Part shown: positions 40,973-51,870 of the stretch, piece by piece
Layout of the letters: every line of letters begins with the position of its first letter
Numbering within the stretch: the first letter of the stretch is position 1
Source of the DNA: a virus
DNA: 64,000 nucleotides
IMG/VR virus record: IMGVR_UViG_3300021142_000007
Span: 1-64,000 of that record
Direction: 5' to 3' (one strand)
The notes under the pieces: generated by a model
Databases searched by the model: none
Seen by the model: only the letters and a program-made list of their open reading frames with translations
What the model was told of the DNA's origin: nothing
Program-made: the position numbers and the translations under genes

Positions 40973-41854
40973 TTAGTTAAGATTCTCATACACAAGCTGG
41001 TGGGCAGTTGTGTTTAGTTCGTTCGCCCTCGCATATAGGATTTTTTCCATATCTCCGCTTGCTATGTCGTGGGTCGTATACCTTGTAACGCCTTGCAATA
41101 AGCTAAACATATTCGCGCCTGTATTTTGCACTTCGATAGCCACCGCGCCATTTATAGCGTCTATAATGTTTCTTTTACGCGAAGTCAATTCGCTGTATTG
41201 GGCTACATTATAGCCTGTTAACTCGGTTATGAAGCTATCTATCTGTTTTTGCGTTACTGCCTTTAGAGACGCTGTATTGAGCAAATTTACATAGTTTTCA
41301 GTTTCGGCTACTACCTTTAAAATTTCGTTGGTAAAAGTTAGCAAACGGGCCTGGTTATTGGTCGTGTTTTTCATAGCTATATCCACATCTTTTTTCCAGT
41401 TTTTAGCACCGTTCGCGCACCATAGACGCAGGGCGTAGAAGCCTAGTGACATTTTGGTCTTACCGTCAAAGCCTGTGCGAAATTCGAGGGCTGTTTCGAG
41501 GGTATCACCTACCATAGGCGATTGTATTTCATATTTTTTTAATGGGAGGCGAAATACTACCTTTGACCCCTTTTGGTATTCGTTGTATGTTAATTTAGAC
41601 AGGTCAACATCTATACCTGAAGCTAATACGCTATTTTCGATAGCGTCCAGAAAAAGGGACAAATCGGTAGGCTCAAAAACGTCCCCCACCACGCCCAAAC
41701 AGTCCCCGCCTGTGTGCTTATATATACCGTAGCTTTTAGGGCTGTTAAAGCCTTCTAAGCCTGTATGTAGCTGTATTTTTTTAGCGTTAAATACTTGGCT
41801 TTTGAGGTTTGCAATGTGTGAACCTTGTGTTTCAAGAAAATTGAGAATTTCCAT
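40973..41854 (-). CDS. DUF932 family protein
   Basis: 293 residues. KSYGIYKHTGGDCLGVVGD, a central FRTGFDGKTKMSLGFYALRL then WCANGAKNWKK, and the helical C terminus match the DUF932 / phage-plasmid-like family (the RxxCxNG-type motif is the hallmark). The family is common in phages and plasmids and has no settled role. It has its own promoter and terminator and is expected to be early. Confidence 0.85.
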   Translation of the reverse strand: MEILNFLETQGSHIANLKSQVFNAKKIQLHTGLEGFNSPKSYGIYKHTGGDCLGVVGDVFEPTDLSLFLDAIENSVLASGIDVDLSKLTYNEYQKGSKVVFRLPLKKYEIQSPMVGDTLETALEFRTGFDGKTKMSLGFYALRLWCANGAKNWKKDVDIAMKNTTNNQARLLTFTNEILKVVAETENYVNLLNTASLKAVTQKQIDSFITELTGYNVAQYSELTSRKRNIIDAINGAVAIEVQNTGANMFSLLQGVTRYTTHDIASGDMEKILYARANELNTTAHQLVYENLN

Positions 41855-41918: not shown

Positions 41919-42001
41919 GTCCTATCTTAATTAATTTCGTTTTAATTTACTTTTTAACATATTAGTAATTTAACATATATGTTAATTTTTTTATTTATAT
42001 G

Positions 42002-42056
42002 TATAGACGTAGTGGAGTATACCTCCCGACCCTTAGTGTCGTCCCGTCTGAATGAC
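42002..42056 (-). ncRNA. Small structured RNA, family member A
   Basis: A promoter ends about 5 bases before the conserved start GTCATTCAGACGGGACG. Predicted fold: P1 AGACG/CGTCT, P2 CGAC/GTCG (7-base loop), P3 GGAG/CTCC with loop GTATA, linker ACTA. No ORF. See findings. Confidence 0.65.
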
Positions 42057-42060
42057 AATA

Positions 42061-42090
42061 CAAAGATAAAAAAAAGGCTTGGATTTCCAA
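42061..42090 (-). promoter_or_regulatory. Host-type promoter (RNA A)
   Basis: Minus strand TTG, 19-base spacer, TATCTTTG at 42061-42068. The spacer is part of the preceding terminator hairpin. Confidence 0.75.
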
Positions 42091-42103
42091 ACCTTTTTTT
42101 GTT
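42068..42103 (-). terminator. Terminator of the 42124 gene
   Basis: AAAGG-TTGG / CCAA-CCTTT hairpin with flanking A and T runs; it overlaps the promoter of RNA A. Confidence 0.8.
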
Positions 42104-42123
42104 AATAGATGTTAATTTTTATC

Positions 42124-42642
42124 TTAGCCAAACATTACGGTAACTCCACATTTGATATGTTTGATATTGTCCATTTTAACGGTACGTACAATTATTGCCT
42201 CGTCTGTGCCTTGATTGGTCGGTGCTGTTGTTTTGGGTCTGAATTGCTTTATAGTGGCAATTTCGCTCTCGCTTGCTTCTATACCATCTATGTAGTATTT
42301 CAGTGTCTCGGACGTATTACAAGCAAATAGCAAATATAATTCTGTCGGGTCGCTTTTTTTGGCTACTATCGAACCGTTAAAGCTATCATTTACCTTTTGG
42401 AACCAATTTTCTTTAGCTGTGAAGTTAGCTTCTTTGCCCTCTTTAGCTAGTCTGTTGTTTACCATGTTAGCATAGTTAGCATTTAGAAGCATATTATAGC
42501 TAACTAGCTTGGTCACTTTTGACTTTGCGAAAGGATTGCCAGTTTTAAGTTGTTTTTGTTCAACTTCGGCTATCATTTGAGCGAATTTCGCTGAACCGCC
42601 ATCATTAATAAGTGTCTCGATTACTTGTGTTTTGTTGTTCAT
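42124..42642 (-). CDS. Early hypothetical protein (172 aa)
   Basis: Helical N-terminal half (SKVTKLVSYNMLLNANYANM, FTAKENWFQKVND), then a beta region and a Thr-rich end. It lies next to the DUF932 gene, and the pair is often seen together in phages as far as I recall. No catalytic motif visible. Own promoter and terminator. Confidence 0.75.
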   Translation of the reverse strand: MNNKTQVIETLINDGGSAKFAQMIAEVEQKQLKTGNPFAKSKVTKLVSYNMLLNANYANMVNNRLAKEGKEANFTAKENWFQKVNDSFNGSIVAKKSDPTELYLLFACNTSETLKYYIDGIEASESEIATIKQFRPKTTAPTNQGTDEAIIVRTVKMDNIKHIKCGVTVMFG

Positions 42643-42670
42643 AACAGTGTGTTTTGATTGATTAATGATA

Positions 42671-42701
42671 CAAATATAGGTTAATTAAATTAGAATAGCA
42701 A
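42671..42701 (-). promoter_or_regulatory. Host-type promoter
   Basis: Minus strand TTG, 20-base spacer, TATATTTG at 42671-42678; drives 42124-42642. Confidence 0.75.
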
Positions 42702-42719
42702 ATTTTATTTGTTAAAAAA

Positions 42720-42995
42720 TCAAAGATTTTTGATAAATTGCTTTATCTTATCATATTCTTTTTTTCCATAATAAAAGACTACCGTTTTATCTTCGTGTAG
42801 CTTGCTTTTATAGCTGTGGCTATCTTCGATAGCTTGTGCTATATTTGCGCTCGTAGTACGTACATAAACGCCTGTTTGAGTACGTACCAATATAGTGCTA
42901 TGTGTGAGGGTATCTCTGCTTATTATTGTCGGTGCTGTGGCGTAGCTTGTTATTGATACAAGTATTAAAGTTAGTGTTAATAGTGTGTTTTTCAT
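42720..42995 (-). CDS. Small secreted protein (91 aa)
   Basis: Start at MKNTLLTLTLIL, just after a promoter; the longer frame would include the promoter. Residues 1-20 are a signal peptide (LTLTLILVSITSYATA). The mature part is Thr/Ser/Lys rich, no Cys. It should be periplasmic or outer-membrane. Function unknown; an effect on the host envelope or superinfection is possible. Confidence 0.75.
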   Translation of the reverse strand: MKNTLLTLTLILVSITSYATAPTIISRDTLTHSTILVRTQTGVYVRTTSANIAQAIEDSHSYKSKLHEDKTVVFYYGKKEYDKIKQFIKNL

Positions 42996-43013
42996 TTCGT
43001 TTGATTGATAGGG

Positions 43014-43043
43014 CAAAGATAGTAATTTAAAATTACCAAACAA
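43014..43043 (-). promoter_or_regulatory. Host-type promoter
   Basis: Minus strand TTG, 19-base spacer, TATCTTTG at 43014-43021; drives 42720-42995. Confidence 0.75.
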
Positions 43044-43105
43044 GTCCCTTAACATTTTTAACATATTAGCTATTTAATATATATGTTAATTTTTTTATGT
43101 ATATG

Positions 43106-43157
43106 TATAGGCGTGTCGGAGTATACCTCCCGCTTCGCAGCGTCCCGTCTGATTGAC
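43106..43157 (-). ncRNA. Small structured RNA, family member B
   Basis: Conserved start GTCAATCAGACGGGACG. P2 CGC/GCG with loop TGCGAA; P3 GGAG/CTCC with loop GTATA, both identical in place to the other members. P1 is AGACG/CGCCT with one mismatch. Confidence 0.62.
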
Positions 43158-43161
43158 AATA

Positions 43162-43192
43162 CAAATATAAAAAAAGGATTTGGAATTACCAA
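43162..43192 (-). promoter_or_regulatory. Host-type promoter (RNA B)
   Basis: Minus strand TTG, 20-base spacer, TATATTTG at 43162-43169, overlapping the terminator of the next gene. Confidence 0.75.
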
Positions 43193-43203
43193 ATCCTTTT
43201 TGT
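43170..43203 (-). terminator. Terminator of the 43223 gene
   Basis: AAAGGATTTGG / CCAAATCCTTTTT hairpin. It overlaps the promoter of RNA B. Confidence 0.85.
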
Positions 43204-43222
43204 TAATAGATGTTAAAAGACC

Positions 43223-43453
43223 TTATTTATTTGCATTGCGGTAGTGATAGTGTTTTTGTTTAATATGTGGCGTTGCATAGGGAGTTTTTGAGAAACGACC
43301 ACTAAAAAGACTTTCGTGTCCATGTACCAATTTTGCGCCATGTCCTCCATTTGAGTAACATGGAGATTCTTTGGTATGTGCTGAAGCAGATAGGGCAATG
43401 AGAGACAGAACAACTACCAATACGAAGATTTTTACCAATACTAAATTTTTCAT
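43223..43453 (-). CDS. Small secreted His-rich protein (76 aa)
   Basis: Signal peptide in residues 1-25 (VLVKIFVLVVVLSLIALSASA). The mature part has many His, Lys and Tyr (HTKESPCYSNGGHGAKLVHG, KQKHYHYRNANK), so metal binding is possible. Its own promoter and terminator. It is the second secreted early protein in a row. Function unknown. Confidence 0.74.
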   Translation of the reverse strand: MKNLVLVKIFVLVVVLSLIALSASAHTKESPCYSNGGHGAKLVHGHESLFSGRFSKTPYATPHIKQKHYHYRNANK

Positions 43454-43483
43454 TTGTGTGTTTTTTTTGAGTGATTAATAGGA

Positions 43484-43513
43484 CAAAGATAGTAATTAAT
43501 TTGATACTTGCAA
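43484..43513 (-). promoter_or_regulatory. Host-type promoter
   Basis: Minus strand TTG, 19-base spacer, TATCTTTG at 43484-43491; drives 43223-43453. Confidence 0.75.
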
Positions 43514-43516
43514 GGA

Positions 43517-43687
43517 CTAATTTGTTAATTTTTTAGGTCTATAACCTACTGAGTATACCGTACCATGATTTATACACATACGAAGATGTTTCCATATCTT
43601 CGTTTGTTTTGGACGTTTACAAGTTTGTGCCCCTACAATATTTTCTTTGCTCTTATTTGTTTCGTAGTAATAAAATTCGTATACCAT
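43517..43687 (-). CDS. Small basic protein (56 aa)
   Basis: A 57-codon frame beginning MVYEFYYYETNKSKEN and ending VGYRPKKLTN, very basic. The host-type promoter ends 23 bases before the ATG, and the frame fills an otherwise empty gap. No family recognised. Confidence 0.68.
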   Translation of the reverse strand: MVYEFYYYETNKSKENIVGAQTCKRPKQTKIWKHLRMCINHGTVYSVGYRPKKLTN

Positions 43688-43710
43688 GATGTGTGTTTTG
43701 ATTGATAGGA

Positions 43711-43741
43711 CAAATATAAATAAAGTAATTTAAACCACCAA
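43711..43741 (-). promoter_or_regulatory. Host-type promoter
   Basis: Minus strand TTG, 20-base spacer, TATATTTG at 43711-43718; drives 43517-43687. Confidence 0.72.
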
Positions 43742-43754
43742 ATAATATTTGTTA

Positions 43755-43784
43755 AAAAAAAGGACTACTTTCGTAGTCCTTTCT
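43755..43784 (-). terminator. Rho-independent terminator
   Basis: AAAGGACTAC / GTAGTCCTTT with minus-strand T run; ends the gene at 43802. Confidence 0.85.
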
Positions 43785-43801
43785 TAACCTATAAACACAC
43801 A

Positions 43802-44026
43802 CTATTTTACTTTGGTGCCATCCCATGTGCCGTATGCTTTAGCGTATGGATTACCACCTGAATATTTTTCAAATACCTTTATAACCGTGCCTTGTGGCAA
43901 GTCTGAATTTAGTTCATATCTACCACCACCGCCAAACATGGAGTAGTTTGTGCCGTATACCTTTTGTTTAGCAGTTAATGCTTCATTGATTGCTTTTTTA
44001 CTTTTAGCTTGTACGTAGATTTCCAT
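43802..44026 (-). CDS. Early hypothetical protein (74 aa)
   Basis: MEIYVQAKSKKAINEALTAK, then a Gly run (FGGGGRYELN), and GTWDGTKVK at the end: a small beta-alpha fold. Similar in size and start pattern (KKAI/LxA near the front) to 46536-46727, but the match is weak. Function unknown. Confidence 0.74.
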   Translation of the reverse strand: MEIYVQAKSKKAINEALTAKQKVYGTNYSMFGGGGRYELNSDLPQGTVIKVFEKYSGGNPYAKAYGTWDGTKVK

Positions 44027-44056
44027 TGTGTGTTATTTTTTGATTGATTAATGATA

Positions 44057-44086
44057 CAAAGATAATGCTTTTTTTGAGACTTGCAA
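44057..44086 (-). promoter_or_regulatory. Host-type promoter
   Basis: Minus strand TTG, 19-base spacer, TATCTTTG at 44057-44064. Confidence 0.75.
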
Positions 44087-44105
44087 GTAATTTTTTGTTA
44101 AAAAT

Positions 44106-44315
44106 TTACATATGGTGACTATACTTGTTAATTAATGCTTTTGCTTCAGATATGAACGAAAGTCTGTCAATAGTTGTTTCGCATAAGCTACCATGTGTTT
44201 CTTCTTCGTATTGGACGCGCTTATCCGCTAGTTTATCTAATTTGTTAAGCCTATCCAAAATAAGGCTCATTTCCTTTGCCATCTTTAGTCTTAGTTGTGG
44301 TTCTTTGTTTGTCAT
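44106..44315 (-). CDS. Early helical protein (69 aa)
   Basis: Start at MTNKEPQLRLKMAKEM; the longer frame is promoter sequence translated. Coiled helices, two Cys. Function unknown. Confidence 0.72.
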   Translation of the reverse strand: MTNKEPQLRLKMAKEMSLILDRLNKLDKLADKRVQYEEETHGSLCETTIDRLSFISEAKALINKYSHHM

Positions 44316-44335
44316 GTGTGTTTTGATTGATAGGG

Positions 44336-44365
44336 CAAAGATACTAATTAAATTCATATTTCCAA
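44336..44365 (-). promoter_or_regulatory. Host-type promoter
   Basis: Minus strand TTG, 19-base spacer, TATCTTTG at 44336-44343; nearly identical to 44588-44617 over 35 bases. Confidence 0.78.
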
Positions 44366-44366
44366 A

Positions 44367-44567
44367 TTAATTTGTTGCTAATTTGAAGATTATTTTTTGC
44401 ACCTTTTTATGTCCTGAATGATAGCTGTCTCCGAATAGGCTTTTACCCATAAATGAGTCCCCTTTTATATTATTGCCTGAGACGGTCTTCATTTCGTCAT
44501 TATGTAGAATTGTGTCGCCAGCTTGGATATTTGAGATGTGTGTTTCTAGTATGCTATAATTGTACAT
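44367..44567 (-). CDS. Early hypothetical protein (66 aa)
   Basis: Start at MYNYSILETHISNIQAGDTI for the same reason as the previous gene. A small beta domain with HNDEMKTVSGNNIKGDSF, basic end. Function unknown. Confidence 0.7.
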   Translation of the reverse strand: MYNYSILETHISNIQAGDTILHNDEMKTVSGNNIKGDSFMGKSLFGDSYHSGHKKVQKIIFKLATN

Positions 44568-44587
44568 GATTGATTGATTTGATAGGG

Positions 44588-44617
44588 CAAAGATACTAAT
44601 TAAATTCATATTTCCAA
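44588..44617 (-). promoter_or_regulatory. Host-type promoter
   Basis: Minus strand TTG, 19-base spacer, TATCTTTG at 44588-44595. Confidence 0.78.
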
Positions 44618-44661
44618 ATTAAAATGAATTTATTTTTTTTTAAGATAAATTGTTAAATACT

Positions 44662-44691
44662 TTGGTAGTCTCAAATAAATAGCTATCTTTG
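44662..44691 (+). promoter_or_regulatory. Host-type promoter (RNA C)
   Basis: Plus strand TTG, 19-base spacer, TATCTTTG at 44684-44691. Confidence 0.75.
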
Positions 44692-44696
44692 TTGGG

Positions 44697-44757
44697 TCAT
44701 TCAGACAGGAGGTCGTCACCGACTTGAGGTAGACTCCGTCACGTCCCTATATAAGGT
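44697..44757 (+). ncRNA. Small structured RNA, family member C
   Basis: The most diverged copy, on the plus strand. It keeps the start GTCATTCAGAC, a P2-like hairpin AGGTCG/CGACTT with loop TCAC, a P3-like GAG/CTC with loop GTAGA and the closing ACGTCCC. P1 pairing is weak. The P2 sequence differs from the others but still pairs. Confidence 0.5.
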
Positions 44758-44790
44758 AATTTTTAAATTTGTTAAAAAGTGTTAATTGGT

Positions 44791-44820
44791 TTGGTTTTTA
44801 AATTAATTAATTTATCTTTG
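44791..44820 (+). promoter_or_regulatory. Host-type promoter
   Basis: TTG at 44791, 19-base spacer, TATCTTTG at 44813-44820, 25 bases before the ATG at 44846. Confidence 0.78.
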
Positions 44821-44845
44821 CCCTATCAATCAAAACACATAATAT

Positions 44846-44986
44846 ATGAGCAAAGCACAAAAGAAGACGATGAAAGCGGTTTATCAAGTCCATATCGGGA
44901 TGAATGTCCTAGATGAGCATGGTATGTATAACTATGACCGAGCGAAGCGTAGAGCGAAATCCTATCATTACTGGAGGTCTAAATAA
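44846..44986 (+). CDS. Small basic protein (46 aa)
   Basis: MSKAQKKTMKAVYQVHIGMN through AKRRAKSYHYWRSK: very basic, likely nucleic-acid binding or a small host-protein ligand. It is called because promoter, ATG, frame and terminator fit closely. Plus strand within a mostly minus-strand block. Confidence 0.72.
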   Translation: MSKAQKKTMKAVYQVHIGMNVLDEHGMYNYDRAKRRAKSYHYWRSK

Positions 44987-44991
44987 CTTCA

Positions 44992-45031
44992 AAAAAAGTG
45001 GGGCTACTATTTGGTAGTCCCATTTCTTTTT
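44992..45031 (+). terminator. Rho-independent terminator
   Basis: GGGGCTAC / GTAGTCCC followed by ATTTCTTTTT. The right arm is shared with the tRNA-like gene promoter. Confidence 0.75.
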
Positions 45032-45041
45032 CATATATTTG
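45011..45041 (+). promoter_or_regulatory. Host-type promoter of the tRNA-Leu-like gene
   Basis: TTG at 45011, 20-base spacer, TATATTTG at 45034-45041. The expected start of transcription is within one or two bases of the tRNA 5' end. Confidence 0.75.
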
Positions 45042-45047
45042 CATTAT

Positions 45048-45179
45048 AATCGGGTGGCGAAATTGGTAGACGCACATAGAGTCATGGTGAAGCACTTTGT
45101 AAAAAGAAAGCCCATGTTTAAGTTTAAAGCTATCTATGATTGGTTGCAAACAATGCAGGTTCGAGTCCTGCTCCGATTA
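45048..45179 (+). tRNA. tRNA-Leu-like gene with an insertion in the anticodon loop
   Basis: Acceptor AATCGGG (45048-45054) pairs with TCCGATT (45172-45178), with discriminator A45179 and no encoded CCA. D arm GCG/CGC with AAATTGGTAGA as in bacterial tRNA-Leu. Long type II variable arm ATTG/CAAT. T arm GCAGG-TTCGAGT-CCTGC. The anticodon stem CATAGA (45075-45080) / TCTATG (45133-45138) is present, but 52 bases lie between instead of 7 or fewer. They include a hairpin CATGG/CCATG (about 45083-45116). No normal anticodon can be assigned. An intron, an anticodon-less tRNA mimic or a broken gene are the options. Confidence 0.7.
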
Positions 45180-45194
45180 CTTAAATCAATCAAT

Positions 45195-45332
45195 ATGTTA
45201 CTACTAGGTAAAAACCCAGAGATAACAGCTATCTTTGATTGTCAGCTTCAGTACTATATCGTTTATAAGAATGGTCAGGTATTGGTCAGTCACAAGTATC
45301 GCTACCGAGACATCGAGAGTTATCTTAATTAA
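45195..45332 (+). CDS. Small hypothetical protein (45 aa)
   Basis: Starts at the ATG of MLLLGKNPEITAIFDCQLQY, 15 bases after the tRNA-like gene; a longer frame would run through the tRNA-like sequence and is rejected. The end is basic (VSHKYRYRDIESYLN). Probably co-transcribed with the RNA. Function unknown. Confidence 0.65.
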   Translation: MLLLGKNPEITAIFDCQLQYYIVYKNGQVLVSHKYRYRDIESYLN

Positions 45333-45338
45333 AATGAA

Positions 45339-45366
45339 AAGGCCCGAATTTCTTCGGGCTTTTTTG
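45339..45366. terminator. Terminator
   Basis: GCCCGAA / TTCGGGC hairpin with four A on the left and six T on the right. It ends the plus-strand unit and may also stop the minus-strand operon 46.1-45.4 kb. Confidence 0.85.
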
Positions 45367-45371
45367 TTTGA

Positions 45372-45425
45372 TATCTAGCCGAGCCTTCGCTGTCCGAGGT
45401 CGGTGTACACAATTGTGTATACTAG
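45372..45425 (+). other. Stem plus ACACAATTGTGT hairpin, element X
   Basis: CCGA-CCT / AGG-TCGG nested stem, then ACACAATTGTGT palindrome. Element Y at 53883-53945 has the same order. Both lie just behind plus-strand terminators. Function unknown. Confidence 0.45.
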
Positions 45426-45568
45426 GGCATTGGGAAGAAATGAAGGAGCAGACCGAATACTATTATGGTGCCAGTTGCACCGATTATAAGACCTACATTG
45501 AAGCCTTCGTTTAAGCCTTGTCTGTGGGCTTTTTCTATTTGTTGTTTGTAGATTGAATTTGTTTGCAT
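45422..45568 (-). CDS. Small membrane protein (48 aa)
   Basis: MQTNSIYKQQIEKAHRQGLN, then a Gly-rich hydrophobic helix (VGLIIGATGTIIVFGLLLHF) and a short FPMP end: one membrane segment. Last gene of a tightly packed four-gene minus-strand operon. Function unknown. Confidence 0.68.
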   Translation of the reverse strand: MQTNSIYKQQIEKAHRQGLNEGFNVGLIIGATGTIIVFGLLLHFFPMP

Positions 45569-45570
45569 GA

Positions 45571-45723
45571 TTATTTTTTAAAGATAAACGGATAATAGAT
45601 GAATTTATACCAATAGACCTTAATCCAAGTCTTGATATTAACGTATCTCTCTATGAGCAATTGTCTTACACCTTTCCATCCTTTGGTGTTCTGTCTTTTA
45701 TAGTCTTGAATAAATGTGTTCAT
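45571..45723 (-). CDS. Small basic aromatic protein (50 aa)
   Basis: MNTFIQDYKRQNTKGWKGVR and a Trp/Tyr/Phe-rich C terminus (KVYWYKFIYYPFIFKK), probably membrane-associated. Two bases from the next gene and one from the previous. Function unknown. Confidence 0.66.
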   Translation of the reverse strand: MNTFIQDYKRQNTKGWKGVRQLLIERYVNIKTWIKVYWYKFIYYPFIFKK

Positions 45724-45724
45724 C

Positions 45725-45817
45725 TTAATTTATTTTTTTGTGAATAACTAAAAATATCAGTCTTCCATATAAGACCCCGATTGCTAGGCATATAAACCAA
45801 TATAGTAGTTCTATCAT
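45725..45817 (-). CDS. Tiny membrane protein (30 aa)
   Basis: MIELLYWFICLAIGVLYGRL then IFLVIHKKIN: a single membrane helix. Its ATGA overlaps the upstream stop, showing translational coupling. Function unknown. Confidence 0.64.
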   Translation of the reverse strand: MIELLYWFICLAIGVLYGRLIFLVIHKKIN

Positions 45818-46056
45818 GATTTATGAGTGTAGTAATTAGTGATTTCAACGAAGTTCTCCATAGAAGAGATGAATTCTGTTTTGATACGTAGAACGTCTTT
45901 TGGCGACTCTGATATACGATTATACTGCATAATAACAGGCAGTTGTGTTTGAGCGTCAATAATGACTATGAGGTCTTGACCAGCTTCTTTAGCGTTTTTA
46001 GCCTCGCGGTACATCATGTGTATGTTCAACTTAATGAACTCAAGTATTCTTTTCAT
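45814..46056 (-). CDS. Early hypothetical protein (80 aa)
   Basis: First gene of the four-gene operon. MKRILEFIKLNIHMMYREAK and QDLIVIIDAQTQLPVIMQYN: alpha/beta, soluble. Function unknown. Confidence 0.74.
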   Translation of the reverse strand: MKRILEFIKLNIHMMYREAKNAKEAGQDLIVIIDAQTQLPVIMQYNRISESPKDVLRIKTEFISSMENFVEITNYYTHKS

Positions 46057-46075
46057 GTTTGATTGATTTATGGTA

Positions 46076-46105
46076 CAAATATAATACTTTTTTTGGTATC
46101 TCCAA
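46076..46105 (-). promoter_or_regulatory. Host-type promoter
   Basis: Minus strand TTG, 19-base spacer, TATATTTG at 46076-46083; drives the four-gene operon. Confidence 0.75.
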
Positions 46106-46109
46106 ATTC

Positions 46110-46310
46110 TTAGTCAGGTATTTTTTCAAATATTTCACCCAGTGATTTATAACCAAACATGTGGTTCAACCATAGATTACCAAAGACCCCACCATTATCA
46201 CCAACGAATCTAACTTGTGTTTCTTTGATAGATACGTCATAGACCTTATTTCGGCTGAGGATGCCAGCTTGTATTGGCAGTTCGTTTTTTGCTATGTATT
46301 TTACTTTCAT
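46110..46310 (-). CDS. Early hypothetical protein (66 aa)
   Basis: MKVKYIAKNELPIQAGILSR then a beta segment (YDVSIKETQVRFVGDNGGVF) and a helix. It looks like a small SH3-like barrel, but this is only a shape guess. Function unknown. Confidence 0.74.
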   Translation of the reverse strand: MKVKYIAKNELPIQAGILSRNKVYDVSIKETQVRFVGDNGGVFGNLWLNHMFGYKSLGEIFEKIPD

Positions 46311-46314
46311 GGTA

Positions 46315-46345
46315 CAAATATAAGCATAAAAAACGAAACCCCCAA
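46315..46345 (-). promoter_or_regulatory. Host-type promoter
   Basis: Minus strand TTG, 20-base spacer, TATATTTG at 46315-46322. Confidence 0.75.
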
Positions 46346-46372
46346 ATTTCTTTGAGAGTTTCGTTCCTTTTT
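46331..46372 (-). terminator. Long-loop hairpin, probable terminator
   Basis: ACGAAAC / GTTTCGT with T-rich flanks on both strands. It ends the unit starting at 46727 and overlaps the promoter of 46110-46310. Between 46373 and 46535 I see only a ten-codon frame (MARNKGSPSK) and nothing stronger. Confidence 0.6.
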
Positions 46373-46535
46373 TATTACTATAATTTCAATGCTTATGACA
46401 AGATGTTTTATTTCATACCTTATAGAGTTTTGGGGTTAATTAATACTTATAAATTTTAACATTAATTCTCTTGATATTCCAGTTACTTATTTACTGGGAC
46501 TGCCTTTGTTTCGTGCCATTTTTCAGAGTTGTGAG

Positions 46536-46727
46536 TTAATTACTTTGTGCGAAGCTAAACGGATATGCTTTCTTGCCTTTGAGATTGCATACGCGGATGA
46601 AGGACTTGACCCTTTCGTCAGTGCCTTTGATGTACATGGTATTCGTACCACCTGAATAGCTTGCGTTTACACCGTATGCTTGCGCTGAAGCTTGCAGTGC
46701 TTTTTTTGGGCTTGTTGTTGTTAACAT
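46536..46727 (-). CDS. Early hypothetical protein (63 aa)
   Basis: MLTTTSPKKALQASAQAYGV, then a Ser/Gly/Thr beta part and VKSFIRVCNLKGKKAYPF. Small and basic. Function unknown. Confidence 0.72.
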   Translation of the reverse strand: MLTTTSPKKALQASAQAYGVNASYSGGTNTMYIKGTDERVKSFIRVCNLKGKKAYPFSFAQSN

Positions 46728-46753
46728 GATTTATTGTTTTTTGATTAATGATA

Positions 46754-46783
46754 CAAAGATAAGACTTATTTTCGTATTTCCAA
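46754..46783 (-). promoter_or_regulatory. Host-type promoter
   Basis: Minus strand TTG, 19-base spacer, TATCTTTG at 46754-46761. The 30-base core is identical to 47459-47488 except for one base, and to 48324-48353. Confidence 0.8.
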
Positions 46784-46794
46784 ATCTTTATTTC

Positions 46795-47079
46795 TTAAAA
46801 GTTTGAATAAGTGTGTATGAAGCTTTCAACCATGATTCTTTCTTTTACCGACTCATATACGATTTCACCGCTAAATGATTCAGGTATTAGATATGAATCA
46901 AACATATTAACCATATCATCACCTATTTTTGCGGCATCATCTTCTGAATCACACATGATGATTGCATCTACACGATGCACCAAAGCTTTTTCACCTTCGG
47001 GTTTAGAGAATAGCTTCAATTCTTTTTCATCGAAATGGTGGAAGGTAATGTTTCCGAGGATTAGCAGTACTTTTTTCAT
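46795..47079 (-). CDS. Early hypothetical protein (94 aa)
   Basis: MKKVLLILGNITFHHFDEKE, then an acidic stretch (DAIIMCDSEDDAAKIGDDMV). Alpha/beta, soluble. Function unknown. Confidence 0.75.
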   Translation of the reverse strand: MKKVLLILGNITFHHFDEKELKLFSKPEGEKALVHRVDAIIMCDSEDDAAKIGDDMVNMFDSYLIPESFSGEIVYESVKERIMVESFIHTYSNF

Positions 47080-47099
47080 GATTGATTATTTTGTTAGGA

Positions 47100-47129
47100 C
47101 AAAGATAAGAATATTATCCGAATTACCAA
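47100..47129 (-). promoter_or_regulatory. Host-type promoter
   Basis: Minus strand TTG, 19-base spacer, TATCTTTG at 47100-47107. Confidence 0.76.
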
Positions 47130-47434
47130 TAAAGATTGATAGGAAATTTTACCTTGCTTTTGACCCATTTGAGTATTTCGTCAGCGTAGTAGCTTGTAGT
47201 TTCTTCGCACAGGTAGTCCAGCAATGCTCTTTCAGCCTTGCCACTATTATTGTCAGGGTTGATGGTTACTTCGATACGATGAACTTCTTTGGCTTTGCTT
47301 TGGTCGCTGTTTTTATTTGTGCCAGCTGATACGTCCCATAGCTTGCTGATTATGGTTACTTTGTTTTTGGTAGTTATTGCGGTGATAACTCCATTCTTTG
47401 CGTATTCGCCAATCTTGAATGTTTTGGTTGCCAT
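47123..47434 (-). CDS. Early hypothetical protein (103 aa)
   Basis: Beta-rich N terminus (KIGEYAKNGVITAITTKNKV) then SAGTNKNSDQSKAKEVHRIE and a helical basic end with EILKWVKSKVKFPINLYW. Function unknown. Confidence 0.74.
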   Translation of the reverse strand: MATKTFKIGEYAKNGVITAITTKNKVTIISKLWDVSAGTNKNSDQSKAKEVHRIEVTINPDNNSGKAERALLDYLCEETTSYYADEILKWVKSKVKFPINLYW

Positions 47435-47458
47435 GATATGTGTTTTTGATTAATGATA

Positions 47459-47488
47459 CAAAGATAAGACTTATTTTCGTATTTCCAA
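47459..47488 (-). promoter_or_regulatory. Host-type promoter
   Basis: Minus strand TTG, 19-base spacer, TATCTTTG at 47459-47466. Confidence 0.8.
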
Positions 47489-47971
47489 GTCTTTTAGCTT
47501 ATTTTTTAGCAAATTCCAAAATAATTCATGGTCTTTCGCATTGAAGGAGAATATTTCGATTATAAAACAATTTATATTCGTATACTTCTCAAGGTTAGAA
47601 ATAACATCTAACCGATACTTATTTCTTAATTCATTTGGAGTCTTTCGCTTGTATTGACTAGCAGTCAGATACTCAAGGTTACCACTTATGTAGTTTTCTT
47701 TTAATACATCGATTATCTCTCCGAGCGTTTCCATTATTGCTTTGAAAGACTCTTTGGTATAGGTAAAGTGTAGATAACTTACGTTATCCCTTAGTAGATT
47801 TTCGCTACGCTTTGATAAGATGGTCTGTAGATTTGGATTGGCATTTATGGCATCCAATACCTCTAGCAAACCTTCATCTAGGTCCCAATCCTTATCGGTG
47901 AATTTCTTTGCCTTGTCCAATTCAGCCATATAATAGGTTTTGCTAGTGGCTGTCAGATATATCTCTTTCAT
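47471..47971 (-). CDS. Early helical protein (166 aa)
   Basis: Helical throughout (MKEIYLTATSKTYYMAELDK, ILSKRSENLLRDNVSYLHF). No motif recognised. It is the second gene of a two-gene unit, one base behind 47973-48299, without its own promoter. Confidence 0.74.
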   Translation of the reverse strand: MKEIYLTATSKTYYMAELDKAKKFTDKDWDLDEGLLEVLDAINANPNLQTILSKRSENLLRDNVSYLHFTYTKESFKAIMETLGEIIDVLKENYISGNLEYLTASQYKRKTPNELRNKYRLDVISNLEKYTNINCFIIEIFSFNAKDHELFWNLLKNKLKDLEIRK

Positions 47972-47972
47972 A

Positions 47973-48299
47973 TTATAGTTGTTCAGGTAGATAAGAAAAT
48001 ATGTATCCGTTCTCTTCGATAGCTAGGTCTACTATATCCTTTGCTTTTTGTTTTGCTTTATCTATAAAGCGTTTAAGGATAGGTTCTTGTTCCTCATAAT
48101 TAAAACCTATTGCTGTTAGGGTTCTTTTAAACTCAATTTGTGTTCTCATGTAGTATGTGACCAAATCTAATATTGCTTGTTCCTTTTCTTCTATTCGACA
48201 ACAAAGAACATCGTCAAATTCTATGTCATTACCAATGGTTATGAACTTGTGGCTTGTTGAACGGATGCTTACTTTTGTGTTTGCTATTCCCAGTATCAT
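47973..48299 (-). CDS. Early hypothetical protein (108 aa)
   Basis: Start at MILGIANTKVSIRSTSHKF, behind the promoter; the longer frame reads through it. Beta-rich first half, helical second half (AKQKAKDIVDLAIEENGYIF). Function unknown. Confidence 0.73.
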   Translation of the reverse strand: MILGIANTKVSIRSTSHKFITIGNDIEFDDVLCCRIEEKEQAILDLVTYYMRTQIEFKRTLTAIGFNYEEQEPILKRFIDKAKQKAKDIVDLAIEENGYIFSYLPEQL

Positions 48300-48323
48300 T
48301 GTATTTGTTTTTGATTGATAGGA

Positions 48324-48353
48324 CAAAGATAAGACTTATTTTCGTATTTCCAA
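48324..48353 (-). promoter_or_regulatory. Host-type promoter
   Basis: Minus strand TTG, 19-base spacer, TATCTTTG at 48324-48331. Confidence 0.8.
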
Positions 48354-48378
48354 ATCCTAGCACAACTTTTTTTAAATA

Positions 48379-48406
48379 AAAAAGGAGGTACAAGTACCTC
48401 CCTTCT
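48379..48406 (-). terminator. Rho-independent terminator
   Basis: GGAGGTAC / GTACCTCC followed on the minus strand by TTTTTTATTT; ends 48424-49101. Confidence 0.85.
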
Positions 48407-48423
48407 TAACAATCAATAAAACA

Positions 48424-49101
48424 CTAGCTTTCAGCTACAAGTAGCTCTATATATTCTTTTTCTGTCAGATGTCGTGGTGCTGTCAGAGGTTCATACTTTC
48501 CTTTCGGCTTTATGAGTATGCAGTCTCCCTGTCTTAGTACCTCTTTAATATGACCCTTCGGCACGTTGGTCTGTATCGTCCATGCAATAGCTTGTATTGC
48601 AGTTATCGGACAATCACTTAGACTATAAAACCACCTATCTTCATTTGTGGTATATACGCTTGCAGGGTCAACCCAAATAAAGTAGGTTCTATCTGTCGAA
48701 GTATCTTTGCACTTCACATAGTAGCAGTCTCTCATTGTCTGCCATGAATCCAAGCCTTCGTTGAAGTACGACCCATCTACTTCGTAGAGTTCGTATATAT
48801 CGTTGAACTTATGTTCGACCCTTTCGCCCTTTTCGTTCACCCAGTTAGTTGTCTTTTCGATGTTTTGGCGACTGATTAGTCTCGGCTTTACTTCATTTAC
48901 GAGACGTTCCAAGCCCAAGCATACTACGCCTACCCTTCTTTGTTCAAGGTTTGGTAGCCTTGCTATTTCTTTGAAGGTCAAAGGCTTGATACTATCCCAA
49001 GTATCTTTTAGTTCAGGAAAAGGACACTCGCTGTTTTTTAGCTTCAATAAACGACTTCCTATTTCGTGTGGAAACTTTTGGCTGTTTACAATGATATTCA
49101 T
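48424..49101 (-). CDS. Early hypothetical protein (225 aa)
   Basis: MNIIVNSQKFPHEIGSRLLK, PLTFKEIARLPNLEQRRVGV and a C-terminal ITAIQAIAWTIQTNVPKGHI region. Several Cys and Trp; soluble. The middle (YFIWVDPASVY) is beta-rich. Function unknown. Confidence 0.77.
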   Translation of the reverse strand: MNIIVNSQKFPHEIGSRLLKLKNSECPFPELKDTWDSIKPLTFKEIARLPNLEQRRVGVVCLGLERLVNEVKPRLISRQNIEKTTNWVNEKGERVEHKFNDIYELYEVDGSYFNEGLDSWQTMRDCYYVKCKDTSTDRTYFIWVDPASVYTTNEDRWFYSLSDCPITAIQAIAWTIQTNVPKGHIKEVLRQGDCILIKPKGKYEPLTAPRHLTEKEYIELLVAES

Positions 49102-49122
49102 TTATATGTTTTTTATGTTAGG

Positions 49123-49152
49123 CAAAGATAAGGAAGTATTCGGAATTTCCAA
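49123..49152 (-). promoter_or_regulatory. Host-type promoter
   Basis: Minus strand TTG, 19-base spacer, TATCTTTG at 49123-49130. Confidence 0.78.
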
Positions 49153-49171
49153 ATACTTCCATGATTTTTTT

Positions 49172-49795
49172 TTAGTCGCTTTCTTTATAAACGTAGCCTT
49201 GTTTGCTAACGCTTATGGTCAACATATTGTCAGATAACTTAATATCTCCTTCGCCTGTGGTGAAGGTGAACCACCCACCTGATTCATCTTCAATCGCTTT
49301 TAGGCAGAAACCTTCGGCTGTGTCTCTTATTTTATCCACTATGCTTTTGGCTCTTGCTTCGTCTTCATCGGTTATAATGAAGTCATGCTTATATAGCACC
49401 GCTTCGTTATCATCATCACCGTTTATGTTTCGGATATGATTAGCCACAAATTCAGCTTCTTCTTTCGATAGTTCTACGGTAGTGTCTTCGGTGAAGGTTT
49501 CGCTAAATTCAGATGTAGCATCCTTGCTAAAGGACAGGTCATCTTCGTCCAATTCGATTGTAACCACACCGTTTTCGCCTATGTAGTGTCCATCTGAATT
49601 TACATAGAAGTCTACCTTGTCATAGATTACTTCATTTATGTATTCATCTATTTCAGGTACTTGTATTTCTTCTCCATCCTTATTGAGGATTGTAATGTCT
49701 GTATCGCCCATGCTATCACCACCGCAGTCAAAAGTGAAGTCTACGTGGTCTACGTTTTTTTCTTTCCAAAGACTGATTATTTCTTCTTTACGCAT
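49172..49795 (-). CDS. Early acidic protein (207 aa)
   Basis: A highly acidic protein (VTIELDEDDLSFSKDATSEF, EDEARAKSIVDKI) with beta segments. Its charge makes a DNA-mimic or host-protein-binding role conceivable, but there is no direct evidence. Own promoter. Confidence 0.76.
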   Translation of the reverse strand: MRKEEIISLWKEKNVDHVDFTFDCGGDSMGDTDITILNKDGEEIQVPEIDEYINEVIYDKVDFYVNSDGHYIGENGVVTIELDEDDLSFSKDATSEFSETFTEDTTVELSKEEAEFVANHIRNINGDDDNEAVLYKHDFIITDEDEARAKSIVDKIRDTAEGFCLKAIEDESGGWFTFTTGEGDIKLSDNMLTISVSKQGYVYKESD

Positions 49796-49818
49796 TTTCT
49801 TGTTTTAATTTATGATGC

Positions 49819-49849
49819 AAATTTATGTAAATAAAATTAAACCACCAAA
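49819..49849 (-). promoter_or_regulatory. Host-type promoter
   Basis: Minus strand TTG, 20-base spacer, TAAATTTG at 49819-49826. Confidence 0.72.
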
Positions 49850-49931
49850 TTTATTTGCTTATTTTTTAAATTATTTTCTAACTCAGGTACGAATCTTATT
49901 CTAAAATCTTGACTTTTACACAAAAATAATA

Positions 49932-49939
49932 TATTTATT
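49932..49939 (+). promoter_or_regulatory. Late-like box TATTTATT
   Basis: One mismatch from the late octamer, 14 bases before the HNH gene ATG at 49954. Confidence 0.4.
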
Positions 49940-49953
49940 GTAAAAACAAAATT

Positions 49954-50739
49954 ATGGATACAAAAATTTGCAATAAGTGTAATCTGGATAAGCCAGTCAA
50001 TGAGTATTATAAAGACAAAACAAAAAAAGATGGTTTAGCTTCTTTTTGTATTGAATGTAAAAAACGTAGCGGTAAATTGTCATATGAAAAAAATGCTGAG
50101 AAAAGAATAGCAAAAGCTAAACAATATCGTGAGCAAAATAGAGATAAAGTAAACAAAAAAAATAAGCTCTATTATCTTAAAAATAAACAAACTTTTTCTG
50201 AAAAATCCAAAATTTATCGTGAGGCAAATTCAGATAATATAAAGAAGATGAGTAAACAATACTATGAAGAAAATAAGCATAAGGTACTGGAGCGTTATTT
50301 TAAAAATAGAGAAAACGAATTAAAAAGAATGAAAGATTGGAAAAAAGACAATCGAAAAAGACTAGCAGAGTATCAAAGAAACTATTATCAATCTCGAAAG
50401 AAAAAAGACCCATTGTTTAAATTAACTCTAAACATTAGAGGGTTAATAAGATTATCAATTAAAAATAAAGGGTTAAAGAAAAACTCTAAAACCTCTGATA
50501 TACTTGGCTGTTCGTTTGAAGAATTTAAAATCTATTTAGAATCTAAGTTTGAGTCTTGGATGAATTGGGATAACTATGGGCTTTATAACGGGGAGCCAAA
50601 CTATGGTTGGGATATTGACCATATAATACCTTTAGCTACTGCCTTAAAGGAAGAAGACTTGCTAAGTTTAAACCACTACACTAATCTTCAACCATTATGT
50701 AGTTATTTGAACAGAGACGTTAAAAAAGATAATTATTGA
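49954..50739 (+). CDS. HNH endonuclease with zinc-finger and long basic coil
   Basis: 261 residues. N-terminal CNKCNLDKPVNEYYKDK followed by SFCIECKK is a Cys4 zinc finger. Then a long Lys/Asn/Glu coil (about 45-150). The C terminus has WMNWDNYGLYNG, GWDIDHIIPLATA and LNHYTNLQPLCSYLN, the HNH (DH...N) nuclease core. It resembles homing-type free-standing HNH genes. It is alone on the plus strand in a minus-strand block and has the late-like box, so it looks inserted. Confidence 0.87.
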   Translation: MDTKICNKCNLDKPVNEYYKDKTKKDGLASFCIECKKRSGKLSYEKNAEKRIAKAKQYREQNRDKVNKKNKLYYLKNKQTFSEKSKIYREANSDNIKKMSKQYYEENKHKVLERYFKNRENELKRMKDWKKDNRKRLAEYQRNYYQSRKKKDPLFKLTLNIRGLIRLSIKNKGLKKNSKTSDILGCSFEEFKIYLESKFESWMNWDNYGLYNGEPNYGWDIDHIIPLATALKEEDLLSLNHYTNLQPLCSYLNRDVKKDNY

Positions 50740-51134
50740 ACATTCTCTTTTAATTTCTCTTTAAATTCTTTTGCTGTTTCATATGCTTCAGGGTTATCTA
50801 AAGGTTTTACTCCGTTACACATCCAAGGTTGCACTTGCATATGTTTTAGATAATCCTGCGGTGTTGGTATGAAGGTTCTGAAGTCTTCAAGAATATGTAG
50901 CATTGCTATATCTACCGTATCAACGCTACGACCATCTGAATTTACTATGTTGTAGCCAAATACCTTTGGTATGATATTATATGCAAACCAAGTATTATGT
51001 GTCAGGAAACGTGAAGTATTGTTGTTCATTGCACCCTTAGGACTATCAAGTAGTTCATGAAGTTGTAGGTAGTCTTCGGGCTTACCACCCCAACGCTTAA
51101 CGCTTGACTTTGAATGTAAGTATGGATTTGCCAT
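50733..51134 (-). CDS. Early hypothetical protein (133 aa)
   Basis: Start at MANPYLHSKSSVKRWGGKPE behind the promoter. Contains LHELLDSPKGAMNNNTSRFL then THNTWFAYN, a conserved-looking helical core. It converges with the HNH gene, overlapping by 7 bases. Function unknown. Confidence 0.76.
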   Translation of the reverse strand: MANPYLHSKSSVKRWGGKPEDYLQLHELLDSPKGAMNNNTSRFLTHNTWFAYNIIPKVFGYNIVNSDGRSVDTVDIAMLHILEDFRTFIPTPQDYLKHMQVQPWMCNGVKPLDNPEAYETAKEFKEKLKENVQ

Positions 51135-51153
51135 GTTTGATTGATTGATAGGA

Positions 51154-51183
51154 CAAAGATACAAAAAGTATTTGAATTTGCAA
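51154..51183 (-). promoter_or_regulatory. Host-type promoter
   Basis: Minus strand TTG, 19-base spacer, TATCTTTG at 51154-51161. Confidence 0.78.
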
Positions 51184-51201
51184 GAACTAATTTGTTAAAA
51201 A

Positions 51202-51462
51202 TTAATCCCAAACTTGGCTAATGCTACCCTCAAAAGGATTGTATTCTACTTGCTTTCCTAGTACATAGTTTCCTTTTTTTACGAAAAGAGCCATGTGTTC
51301 AGCTTGCGAACCATCAGGCTTTTCGTGCTTTAGTATGCTATCTTCGTTCACCTTTATAGGTGCGAAGTCAGCAGGTTTCTCGTCTACGGTCAGGCTTCCA
51401 TAAAGGGTATGTTGGTGCGAACCTTCGCCTTTAAGTAGGATTTGTCTTTTTGTTTTTGGCAT
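51202..51462 (-). CDS. Early hypothetical protein (86 aa)
   Basis: MPKTKRQILLKGEGSHQHTL, then beta strands (LYGSLTVDEKPADFAPIKV) and EYNPFEGSISQVWD. A small beta domain with conserved-looking His. Function unknown. Confidence 0.74.
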   Translation of the reverse strand: MPKTKRQILLKGEGSHQHTLYGSLTVDEKPADFAPIKVNEDSILKHEKPDGSQAEHMALFVKKGNYVLGKQVEYNPFEGSISQVWD

Positions 51463-51481
51463 GAGTATTTTATTTATGATG

Positions 51482-51511
51482 CAAATATACTAATTAATTT
51501 TGAAAAAACAA
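51482..51511 (-). promoter_or_regulatory. Host-type promoter
   Basis: Minus strand TTG, 19-base spacer, TATATTTG at 51482-51489. Confidence 0.74.
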
Positions 51512-51514
51512 ATC

Positions 51515-51697
51515 TTATTCGATTTCTTTTATTTCCATTATATCAACATCAGCACCGTATTGTTTTGATAGCACTGGCGCAATCGTTGAATTAAATTCAT
51601 TTCTTGCCATTTCTTCATCACTGGCTTTAACCGTTACATTTCCTGTGGTGAACCCTTCATCACAATGATAATTGAACCTTATATTAAACTTTTTCAT
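51515..51697 (-). CDS. Early hypothetical protein (60 aa)
   Basis: Start at MKKFNIRFNYHCDEGFTTGN; the long upstream frame crosses the promoter and the small RNA region. A small beta-alpha fold with VKASDEEMARNEFN. Function unknown. Confidence 0.72.
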   Translation of the reverse strand: MKKFNIRFNYHCDEGFTTGNVTVKASDEEMARNEFNSTIAPVLSKQYGADVDIMEIKEIE

Positions 51698-51714
51698 GTT
51701 GGTTTCTTTTAATG

Positions 51715-51745
51715 CAAATCTATGAATAAATATCCGAAAAAACAA
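51715..51745 (-). promoter_or_regulatory. Host-type promoter
   Basis: Minus strand TTG, 20-base spacer, TAGATTTG at 51715-51722. Confidence 0.72.
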
Positions 51746-51779
51746 GCATTTACCTAAATAAAAATAATTTGTTAAATGC

Positions 51780-51810
51780 TTGGTGAATTCAAGTCTTTTG
51801 CTTATGTTTG
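51780..51810 (+). promoter_or_regulatory. Host-type promoter (RNA D)
   Basis: TTG at 51780, 20-base spacer, TATGTTTG at 51803-51810. Confidence 0.72.
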
Positions 51811-51814
51811 TTTT

Positions 51815-51870
51815 GTCATTCAGACGGGACGCTGCAAAGCGGGAGGTATACTCCACTACGTCCCTATATT
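51815..51870 (+). ncRNA. Small structured RNA, family member D
   Basis: Conserved start GTCATTCAGACGGGACG. P1 GACG/CGTC (51823-51826 with 51859-51862), P2 CGC/GCG (51830-51832 with 51839-51841), P3 GGAG/CTCC (51842-51845 with 51851-51854), linker ACTA. An alternative P1 GGGACG/CGTCCC is also possible. Confidence 0.65.

What the first reader, a model, noticed from the sequence alone, without database searches (positions are those of the whole stretch)
42002..51870. Four-copy family of small structured RNAs with their own promoters
Copies at 42002-42056 (-), 43106-43157 (-), 44697-44757 (+) and 51815-51870 (+) share the start GTCAnTCAGACnGG and the same fold: P1, a 3-base spacer, P2, P3 (GGAG/CTCC, loop GTATA) and a closing strand. 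P2 changes sequence but keeps pairing (CGC/GCG, CGAC/GTCG, GTCG/CGAC). Each lies 4-6 bases behind a TTG-N19/20-TAnnTTTG promoter and none has an ORF. P3 exposes GGAGGTA, a Shine-Dalgarno-like sequence, so ribosome or mRNA binding is one idea. I know no described family like this. Copy C is diverged and its P1 is weak.
Basis: partly seen in the sequence, partly recalled or inferred. Interest (0 to 1): 0.82.

Follow-up and report, generated by a model that had tools for sequence, protein, structure and literature searches.

The report
Multi-copy small RNA family in phages
Large uncultured viruses of Bacteroidota bacteria carry from one to about fourteen copies of a short folded RNA of about 70 letters, each with its own switch, that matches no catalogued RNA family and probably works by docking onto another molecule in the infected cell.

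Summary
The four copies are real and belong to a larger, undescribed RNA family. The window is the first 64 kb of a 135-kb virus record with a T4-type terminase and Bacteroidota promoters. A fifth copy lies just outside it. Covariance models built from the copies found about 175 copies in 48 IMG/VR virus records (some near-duplicates), up to 14 per contig. Terminases of these phages range from 78% down to about 26% identity to this one. No Rfam family matches, and none of the four cultured or sequenced reference phages tested carries it.

The comparison corrects the fold. P3 is optional; its 3' strand lies in a near-invariant core, GUA[U/G]ACUCC. The Shine-Dalgarno-like GGAGG is not conserved. 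Nearly every copy starts a few bases behind a TTTGG-N~19-TAnnTTTG promoter. 38 of 89 have a convergent gene downstream, and 37 of the other 51 have a separate promoter before the next gene, so these are freestanding RNA genes, not leaders.

Most likely it is an early trans-acting RNA that offers the conserved core to a protein, with copy number setting dose. The binding partner is inferred, not shown.

The parts
42014..42056 (-). RNA copy A (conserved part 42056>42014, tail runs on to about 41995): P0 42056-42046, spacer GGGA, P2 42041-42027 (CGAC/GUCG), GGAG, core GUAUACUCC 42022-42014
   Evidence: CM E 5e-25 (used to build the model)
42061..42090 (-). promoter of copy A: TTTGG with TTG at 42090-42088, 19-nt spacer, TATCTTTG 42068-42061; lies inside the terminator-like hairpin 42100-42069 of the upstream gene
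   Evidence: family promoter profile
43118..43157 (-). RNA copy B: P0 43157-43147, GGGA, P2 43142-43131 (CGCU-GCGA-AGCG), GGAG, core 43126-43118; A and B share about 165 bp including both flanks, a local duplication
43162..43192 (-). promoter of copy B: TTG 43192-43190, 20-nt spacer, TATATTTG 43169-43162
44696..44737 (+). RNA copy C: P0 44696-44706, spacer AGG, P2 44710-44725 (AGGUCG-UCAC-CGACUU), GAG, core GUAGACUCC 44729-44737
44662..44691 (+). promoter of copy C: TTG 44662-44664, 19-nt spacer, TATCTTTG 44684-44691
51815..51854 (+). RNA copy D: P0 51815-51825, GGGA, P2 51830-51841 (CGCU-GCAA-AGCG), GGAG, core 51846-51854; followed by convergent genes
51780..51810 (+). promoter of copy D: TTG 51780-51782, 20-nt spacer, TATGTTTG 51803-51810

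Best explanation
Each copy is a freestanding small RNA gene read early in infection by host RNA polymerase from a Bacteroidota primary-sigma promoter. The RNA is about 70 nt: a 5' hairpin (P0), a 3-4 nt spacer, a second hairpin (P2), a purine stretch, the near-invariant core GUA[U/G]ACUCC, then a semi-conserved tail that in about 30% of copies runs into a U-tract at a fixed distance. The hairpins act as sequence-free scaffolds. The core, single-stranded or in a weak mini-hairpin, is what is recognised. Most likely it is bound in trans by a protein, either a host RNA-binding protein that the phage sequesters or redirects, or a phage protein, and copy number sets the dose. Shown: family, structure, promoters, autonomy, copy number. 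Inferred: transcription, early timing, protein binding and the partner. Confidence is about 0.9 that this is a trans-acting structured RNA family and about 0.45 for protein titration as the mechanism.
For: Compensatory change in P0 and P2: 53 cells with both sides changed against 14 in shuffles, 0 of 500 shuffles as high; arms of the same RNA pair better than swapped arms; earlier set. Loci fetched only by the 3' core pattern turn out to carry P0, P2 and the promoter as well. Autonomy: 38 of 89 have a convergent downstream gene; 37 of 51 same-strand cases have another TAnnTTTG before the next gene. Copy number 1-14 per record. The core is near-invariant across paralogs and phages while the hairpins drift. 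Position 4 of the core is U or G about equally, which cannot pair with one fixed target base. No excess of complementary sites in the phage. Precedent for a multicopy sRNA set bound by an RRM protein in this phylum: FopS/RbpB (PMC11697453).
Against: No protein partner was found: no protein family occurs in all RNA-bearing records and none of the RNA-free ones (best 8 of 11), and adjacent genes differ. No expression data exist. Base pairing with a host RNA is not excluded, because no host genome could be scanned. Most copies have no clear terminator of their own.
Confidence: 0.5

Rival explanations
1. Antisense small RNA: the conserved GUAKACUCC core is a seed that pairs with a fixed host RNA or host mRNA set, as FopS does with susC-type mRNAs.
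For: Short conserved, largely unpaired core in a multicopy family; FopS precedent.
Against: U/G alternate at core position 4; no excess of GGAGTATAC or GGAGTCTAC sites in the phage; antisense matches to E. coli 16S and 23S rRNA do not clearly exceed shuffled controls (2 of 60 shuffles for 16S among four tests). Only E. coli rRNA was tested, not a host genome.
Confidence: 0.22
2. Cis-acting nascent-RNA element like HK022 put, which changes RNA polymerase so that it reads through terminators.
For: About 70 nt, two stem-loops, right behind the promoter, many copies in an early region; put RNAs are about 70 nt with two stem-loops and putL lies just behind PL (PMC9378689).
Against: 38 of 89 copies face a convergent gene and 37 of the remaining 51 are followed by another promoter before the next gene; some run into a U-tract at a fixed distance. 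There is usually no operon for them to antiterminate.
Confidence: 0.08
3. RNA decoy against a host defence that uses or senses RNA (for example a type III toxin-antitoxin or an RNA-guided system); a special case of protein titration.
For: Multicopy, probably early, variable shell with a constant core, patchy presence among related phages.
Against: No defence-related gene next to the copies by PADLOC models, which is not expected for a decoy anyway; copies are dispersed, not tandem; no Rfam match to any known defence RNA.
Confidence: 0.15
4. DNA site for a phage protein near early promoters, not an RNA.
For: Core sequence is conserved even where P3 pairing is lost; position relative to the promoter is fixed.
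Against: P0 and P2 arms covary in sequence with conserved pairing and variable loop length. Other phage genes with the same promoter type lack the element.
Confidence: 0.03

Closest known systems
FopS, family of paralogous sRNAs of Bacteroides (RF04319; PMC11697453)
   Same: Bacteroidota; about 14 dispersed paralogs; canonical primary-sigma promoters; conserved core; one sequence reported in a Caudovirales phage.
   Different: [quoted passage not shown] here the RNA starts with a hairpin and the conserved core is 3' of two hairpins. No RF04319 hit at any copy; the one sub-threshold hit (24.5 bits, cut-off 56) is elsewhere.
HK022 putL/putR antiterminator RNAs (PMC9378689)
   Same: Phage RNA of about 70 nt with two stem-loops at the start of an early transcript.
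   Different: put works in cis on its own operon; most copies here have no operon downstream. No sequence comparison with put was made.
GOLLD and other large ornate RNAs (PMC12286853)
   Same: Structured non-coding RNAs found in environmental sequences and phages.
   Different: GOLLD is a giant ornate RNA; this one is about 70 nt and multicopy. No Rfam hit.
T4 stable RNAs C and D (own knowledge)
   Same: Small stable RNAs of unknown function in a T4-type phage genome.
   Different: Single-copy, in the T4 tRNA cluster; similarity was not tested here.

Membership tests
FopS (RF04319) | match to the Rfam covariance model | tested here: not met
   no hit at any copy
FopS (RF04319) | single-stranded 5' seed then terminator hairpin | tested here: not met
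   covarying hairpin P0 at the 5' end
FopS (RF04319) | many paralogs behind primary-sigma promoters | tested here: met
FopS (RF04319) | binds RbpB and represses SusC-type mRNAs | not testable with these tools
   needs binding and expression experiments
HK022 put-type antiterminator | two stem-loops, about 70 nt, right behind a promoter | tested here: met
HK022 put-type antiterminator | lies upstream of, and in the same transcript as, the operon it acts on | tested here: not met
   38/89 convergent, 37/51 others have an intervening promoter
HK022 put-type antiterminator | acts on RNA polymerase beta' zinc-binding domain | not testable with these tools
   needs transcription assays
Type III toxin-antitoxin RNA (ToxI type; own knowledge) | tandem repeats next to a ToxN-type nuclease gene | tested here: not met
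   copies are dispersed on both strands; no PADLOC or Pfam toxin at tested window neighbours
any Rfam 15 family | score above gathering threshold | tested here: not met
   only tRNA reaches the threshold in the sequences searched
23S rRNA H71 mimic | RNAs align to H70-H71 more often than shuffled RNAs | tested here: not met
   4/90 against 19/450

The most novel reading that the evidence does not exclude
A phage-encoded, dose-amplified RNA decoy: the viruses flood the Bacteroidota host with up to 14 versions of one RNA whose constant core captures a specific host protein, either a central RNA-binding regulator or a defence effector. This would be an RNA-based host-takeover or counter-defence strategy with no described relative.
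Probability: 0.3. Interest if true: 0.88.

Novelty: new variant of a known kind. Interest (0 to 1): 0.72.

Why it matters
Few phage small RNAs have a family-wide structure supported by covariation, and I found none described with up to 14 copies per virus. The family gives a defined core sequence to use as bait, and a clear question: what do these phages need so many copies for? Bacteroidota lack the classical RNA chaperones (PMC11697453), so a phage RNA aimed at their RNA machinery, or at a defence, could reveal a host factor.

Tried and rejected
A tail-to-purine-stretch terminator helix (RRGGUA/UACCYY): fits some members well but no better than swapped overall. Mimic of 23S rRNA H71 (tail ACUCCGACCUGCAC looks like GUUCCGACCUGCAC): no excess over shuffled RNAs. 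Antisense to 16S h41: best hit only 2/60 against shuffles in one of four tests, driven by one subfamily. Antisense sites in the phage's own genome: no excess. Cis leader: rejected on context. A marker protein that travels with the RNA: none; the 172-aa gene at 42124-42642 often sits beside copies but also occurs in RNA-free phages. Coding small peptide: 38 of 90 RNAs have no ATG at all and the longest frames are short. Host genomes: a 3'-core pattern scan of genome contigs found nothing; the terminase query gave no Bacteroidota genome, so the covariance model could not be run on hosts. BLAST of RNA copies against sequenced phages: nothing credible.

Full report
What was checked. The four places read as the finding says, each with an exact GTCAnTCAGACnGG. 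The window is positions 1-64000 of a 135,399-bp virus record. It has a T4-type terminase (the nearest named records are only about 30% identical), a portal and a major head protein. A fifth copy lies at 64684-64755. Rfam 15 has no match at the copies or their relatives.

Relatives. One pattern scan found a fifth sequence in a syntenic place of another virus. A covariance model from these five (R1) found diverged relatives beside the same gene in other phages and many more in whole records. A second model from 39 matches (R2) was run over 88 records of terminase and gene-neighbour relatives. It was also run over records fetched only by two 17-18-base patterns from the 3' core. By my count about 175 copies in 48 virus records score below E = 0.001 or close to it. 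Some records are near-duplicates, so this overstates independent cases. Copy number runs from 1 to 14 (G114 14, G126 and G127 13, G032, G118 and G124 9 each). About 25 records with a close terminase have none, including long ones such as G019, G023 and G028, which also shows that the model does not fire at random. RNA-bearing records have terminases from 78% to about 26% identical to this one, so the family spans divergent phages. Flavobacterium phage immuto, Cellulophaga phi17:2, Microcystis phage Mel-JY01, a 484-kb uncultured phage and an Emticicia plasmid have none.

Structure. Parsing each member separately shows a 5' hairpin directly behind the promoter (P0), a 3-4-base spacer, a second hairpin (P2), a purine stretch, the core GUA[U/G]ACUCC and a tail. 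P0 arms change from GUC/GAC to GUUAUC/GAUAAC, GUUCA/UGAAC, GUAC/GUAC, GUUGAUU/GAUCAAC and others. P2 arms change from CGCU/AGCG to CGAC/GUCG, AGGUCG/CGACUU, CGUUGC/GUAACG, CAAUAUU/AAUAUUG and others. Counting on the alignments gives 24 and 53 both-side changes against 5 and 14 in shuffles, with no shuffle as high, and the signal vanishes when partners are slid by one column. These alignments were fitted to the model, so I also swapped arms between members without any alignment: own arms pair better than swapped arms for both helices. P3 pairs fully as GGAG/CUCC in 27 of 90, and in another register (RAG-UAKA-CUC) in 44. Its 3' strand hardly varies, so P3 has little covariation support.

Transcription unit. 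63 of 90 members have all six fixed bases of TAnnTTTG (1% at random places) with TTTGG about 19 bases upstream. TAnnTTTG is the -7 box of the flavobacterial primary sigma factor (PMC9723704). Protein genes of this region use the same type of promoter (sequence). Of 89 members with a gene in reach, 38 face a convergent gene, typically 25-110 bases away; of the other 51, 37 have a further TAnnTTTG before the next gene. About 27 of 90 have a U-run of five or more starting 11-14 bases behind the core. Others, such as D and the G032 copies, run towards terminator-like hairpins that may belong to the convergent gene. The 3' ends are therefore uncertain.

Function. The parts that drift freely are the hairpin sequences; the part that is kept is the core and its purine flank. 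Core position 4 is U or G about equally, which a single antisense target could not tolerate, while a protein or a small internal fold could. There is no excess of complementary sites in the phage genome and no rRNA mimicry. No protein travels strictly with the RNA, which favours a host partner or one that is too diverged to see. The multicopy state, with independent promoters on both strands, suggests that dose matters. I therefore favour titration or redirection of an RNA-binding protein, with antisense action as the main rival.

Comparison. The nearest analogue is FopS, 14 paralogous sRNAs of Bacteroides bound by the RRM protein RbpB, with one relative reported in a phage (PMC11697453). FopS is built differently and its Rfam model does not match here. 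HK022 put is alike in size, two stem-loops and position (PMC9378689), but it acts in cis on a downstream operon, which most copies here lack. I therefore file it under neither.

Limits. No expression data exist and no host genome of the phylum could be scanned. E-values come from shortened calibration.

Noticed in passing
window 45039-45182 (+); L005 about 1046-1152 (+): tRNA-like sequences with a matching acceptor arm and T arm (GGTTCGAGTCC / GGTTCGAATCC) but a long insert; ARAGORN and Rfam do not call the window one. Possibly tRNA genes with an intron or a greatly enlarged arm. Several related phages give tRNAs with two-letter anticodons in ARAGORN.
   Followed up: partly
window 42069-42100 and 43171-43201 (-): Terminator-like hairpins of the upstream genes overlap the promoters of copies A and B: the TTTGG box is in one arm and the T-tract runs into TAnnTTTG. 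In many other members TTTGG-N7-CAAA forms a partial inverted repeat; neighbouring protein genes show a similar extended box.
   Followed up: partly
window 41951-42115 and 43055-43216: Copies A and B share about 165 bp including both flanks (84-90% identity), a local segmental duplication.
   Followed up: yes
G119:C1:57174-61622 and G107:C1:51046-53478: The terminase matches in two pieces inside one long open frame (1500 and 819 codons), as expected for an intein or similar in-frame insert.
   Followed up: no
window 42124-42642 (-): 172-aa protein without Pfam, PHROG, PADLOC or PDB match, found in many of these phages, often beside the RNA but also present in RNA-free relatives.
   Followed up: partly
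L135 (record positions about 124-129 kb): Nine tRNA genes by ARAGORN (Thr, Lys x3, Gly, Thr, Tyr, Gln, Pro), away from the RNA copies.
   Followed up: no
window 40973-41854 (-): DUF932 protein directly downstream of copy A; DUF932 also appears on an Emticicia conjugative plasmid.
   Followed up: no
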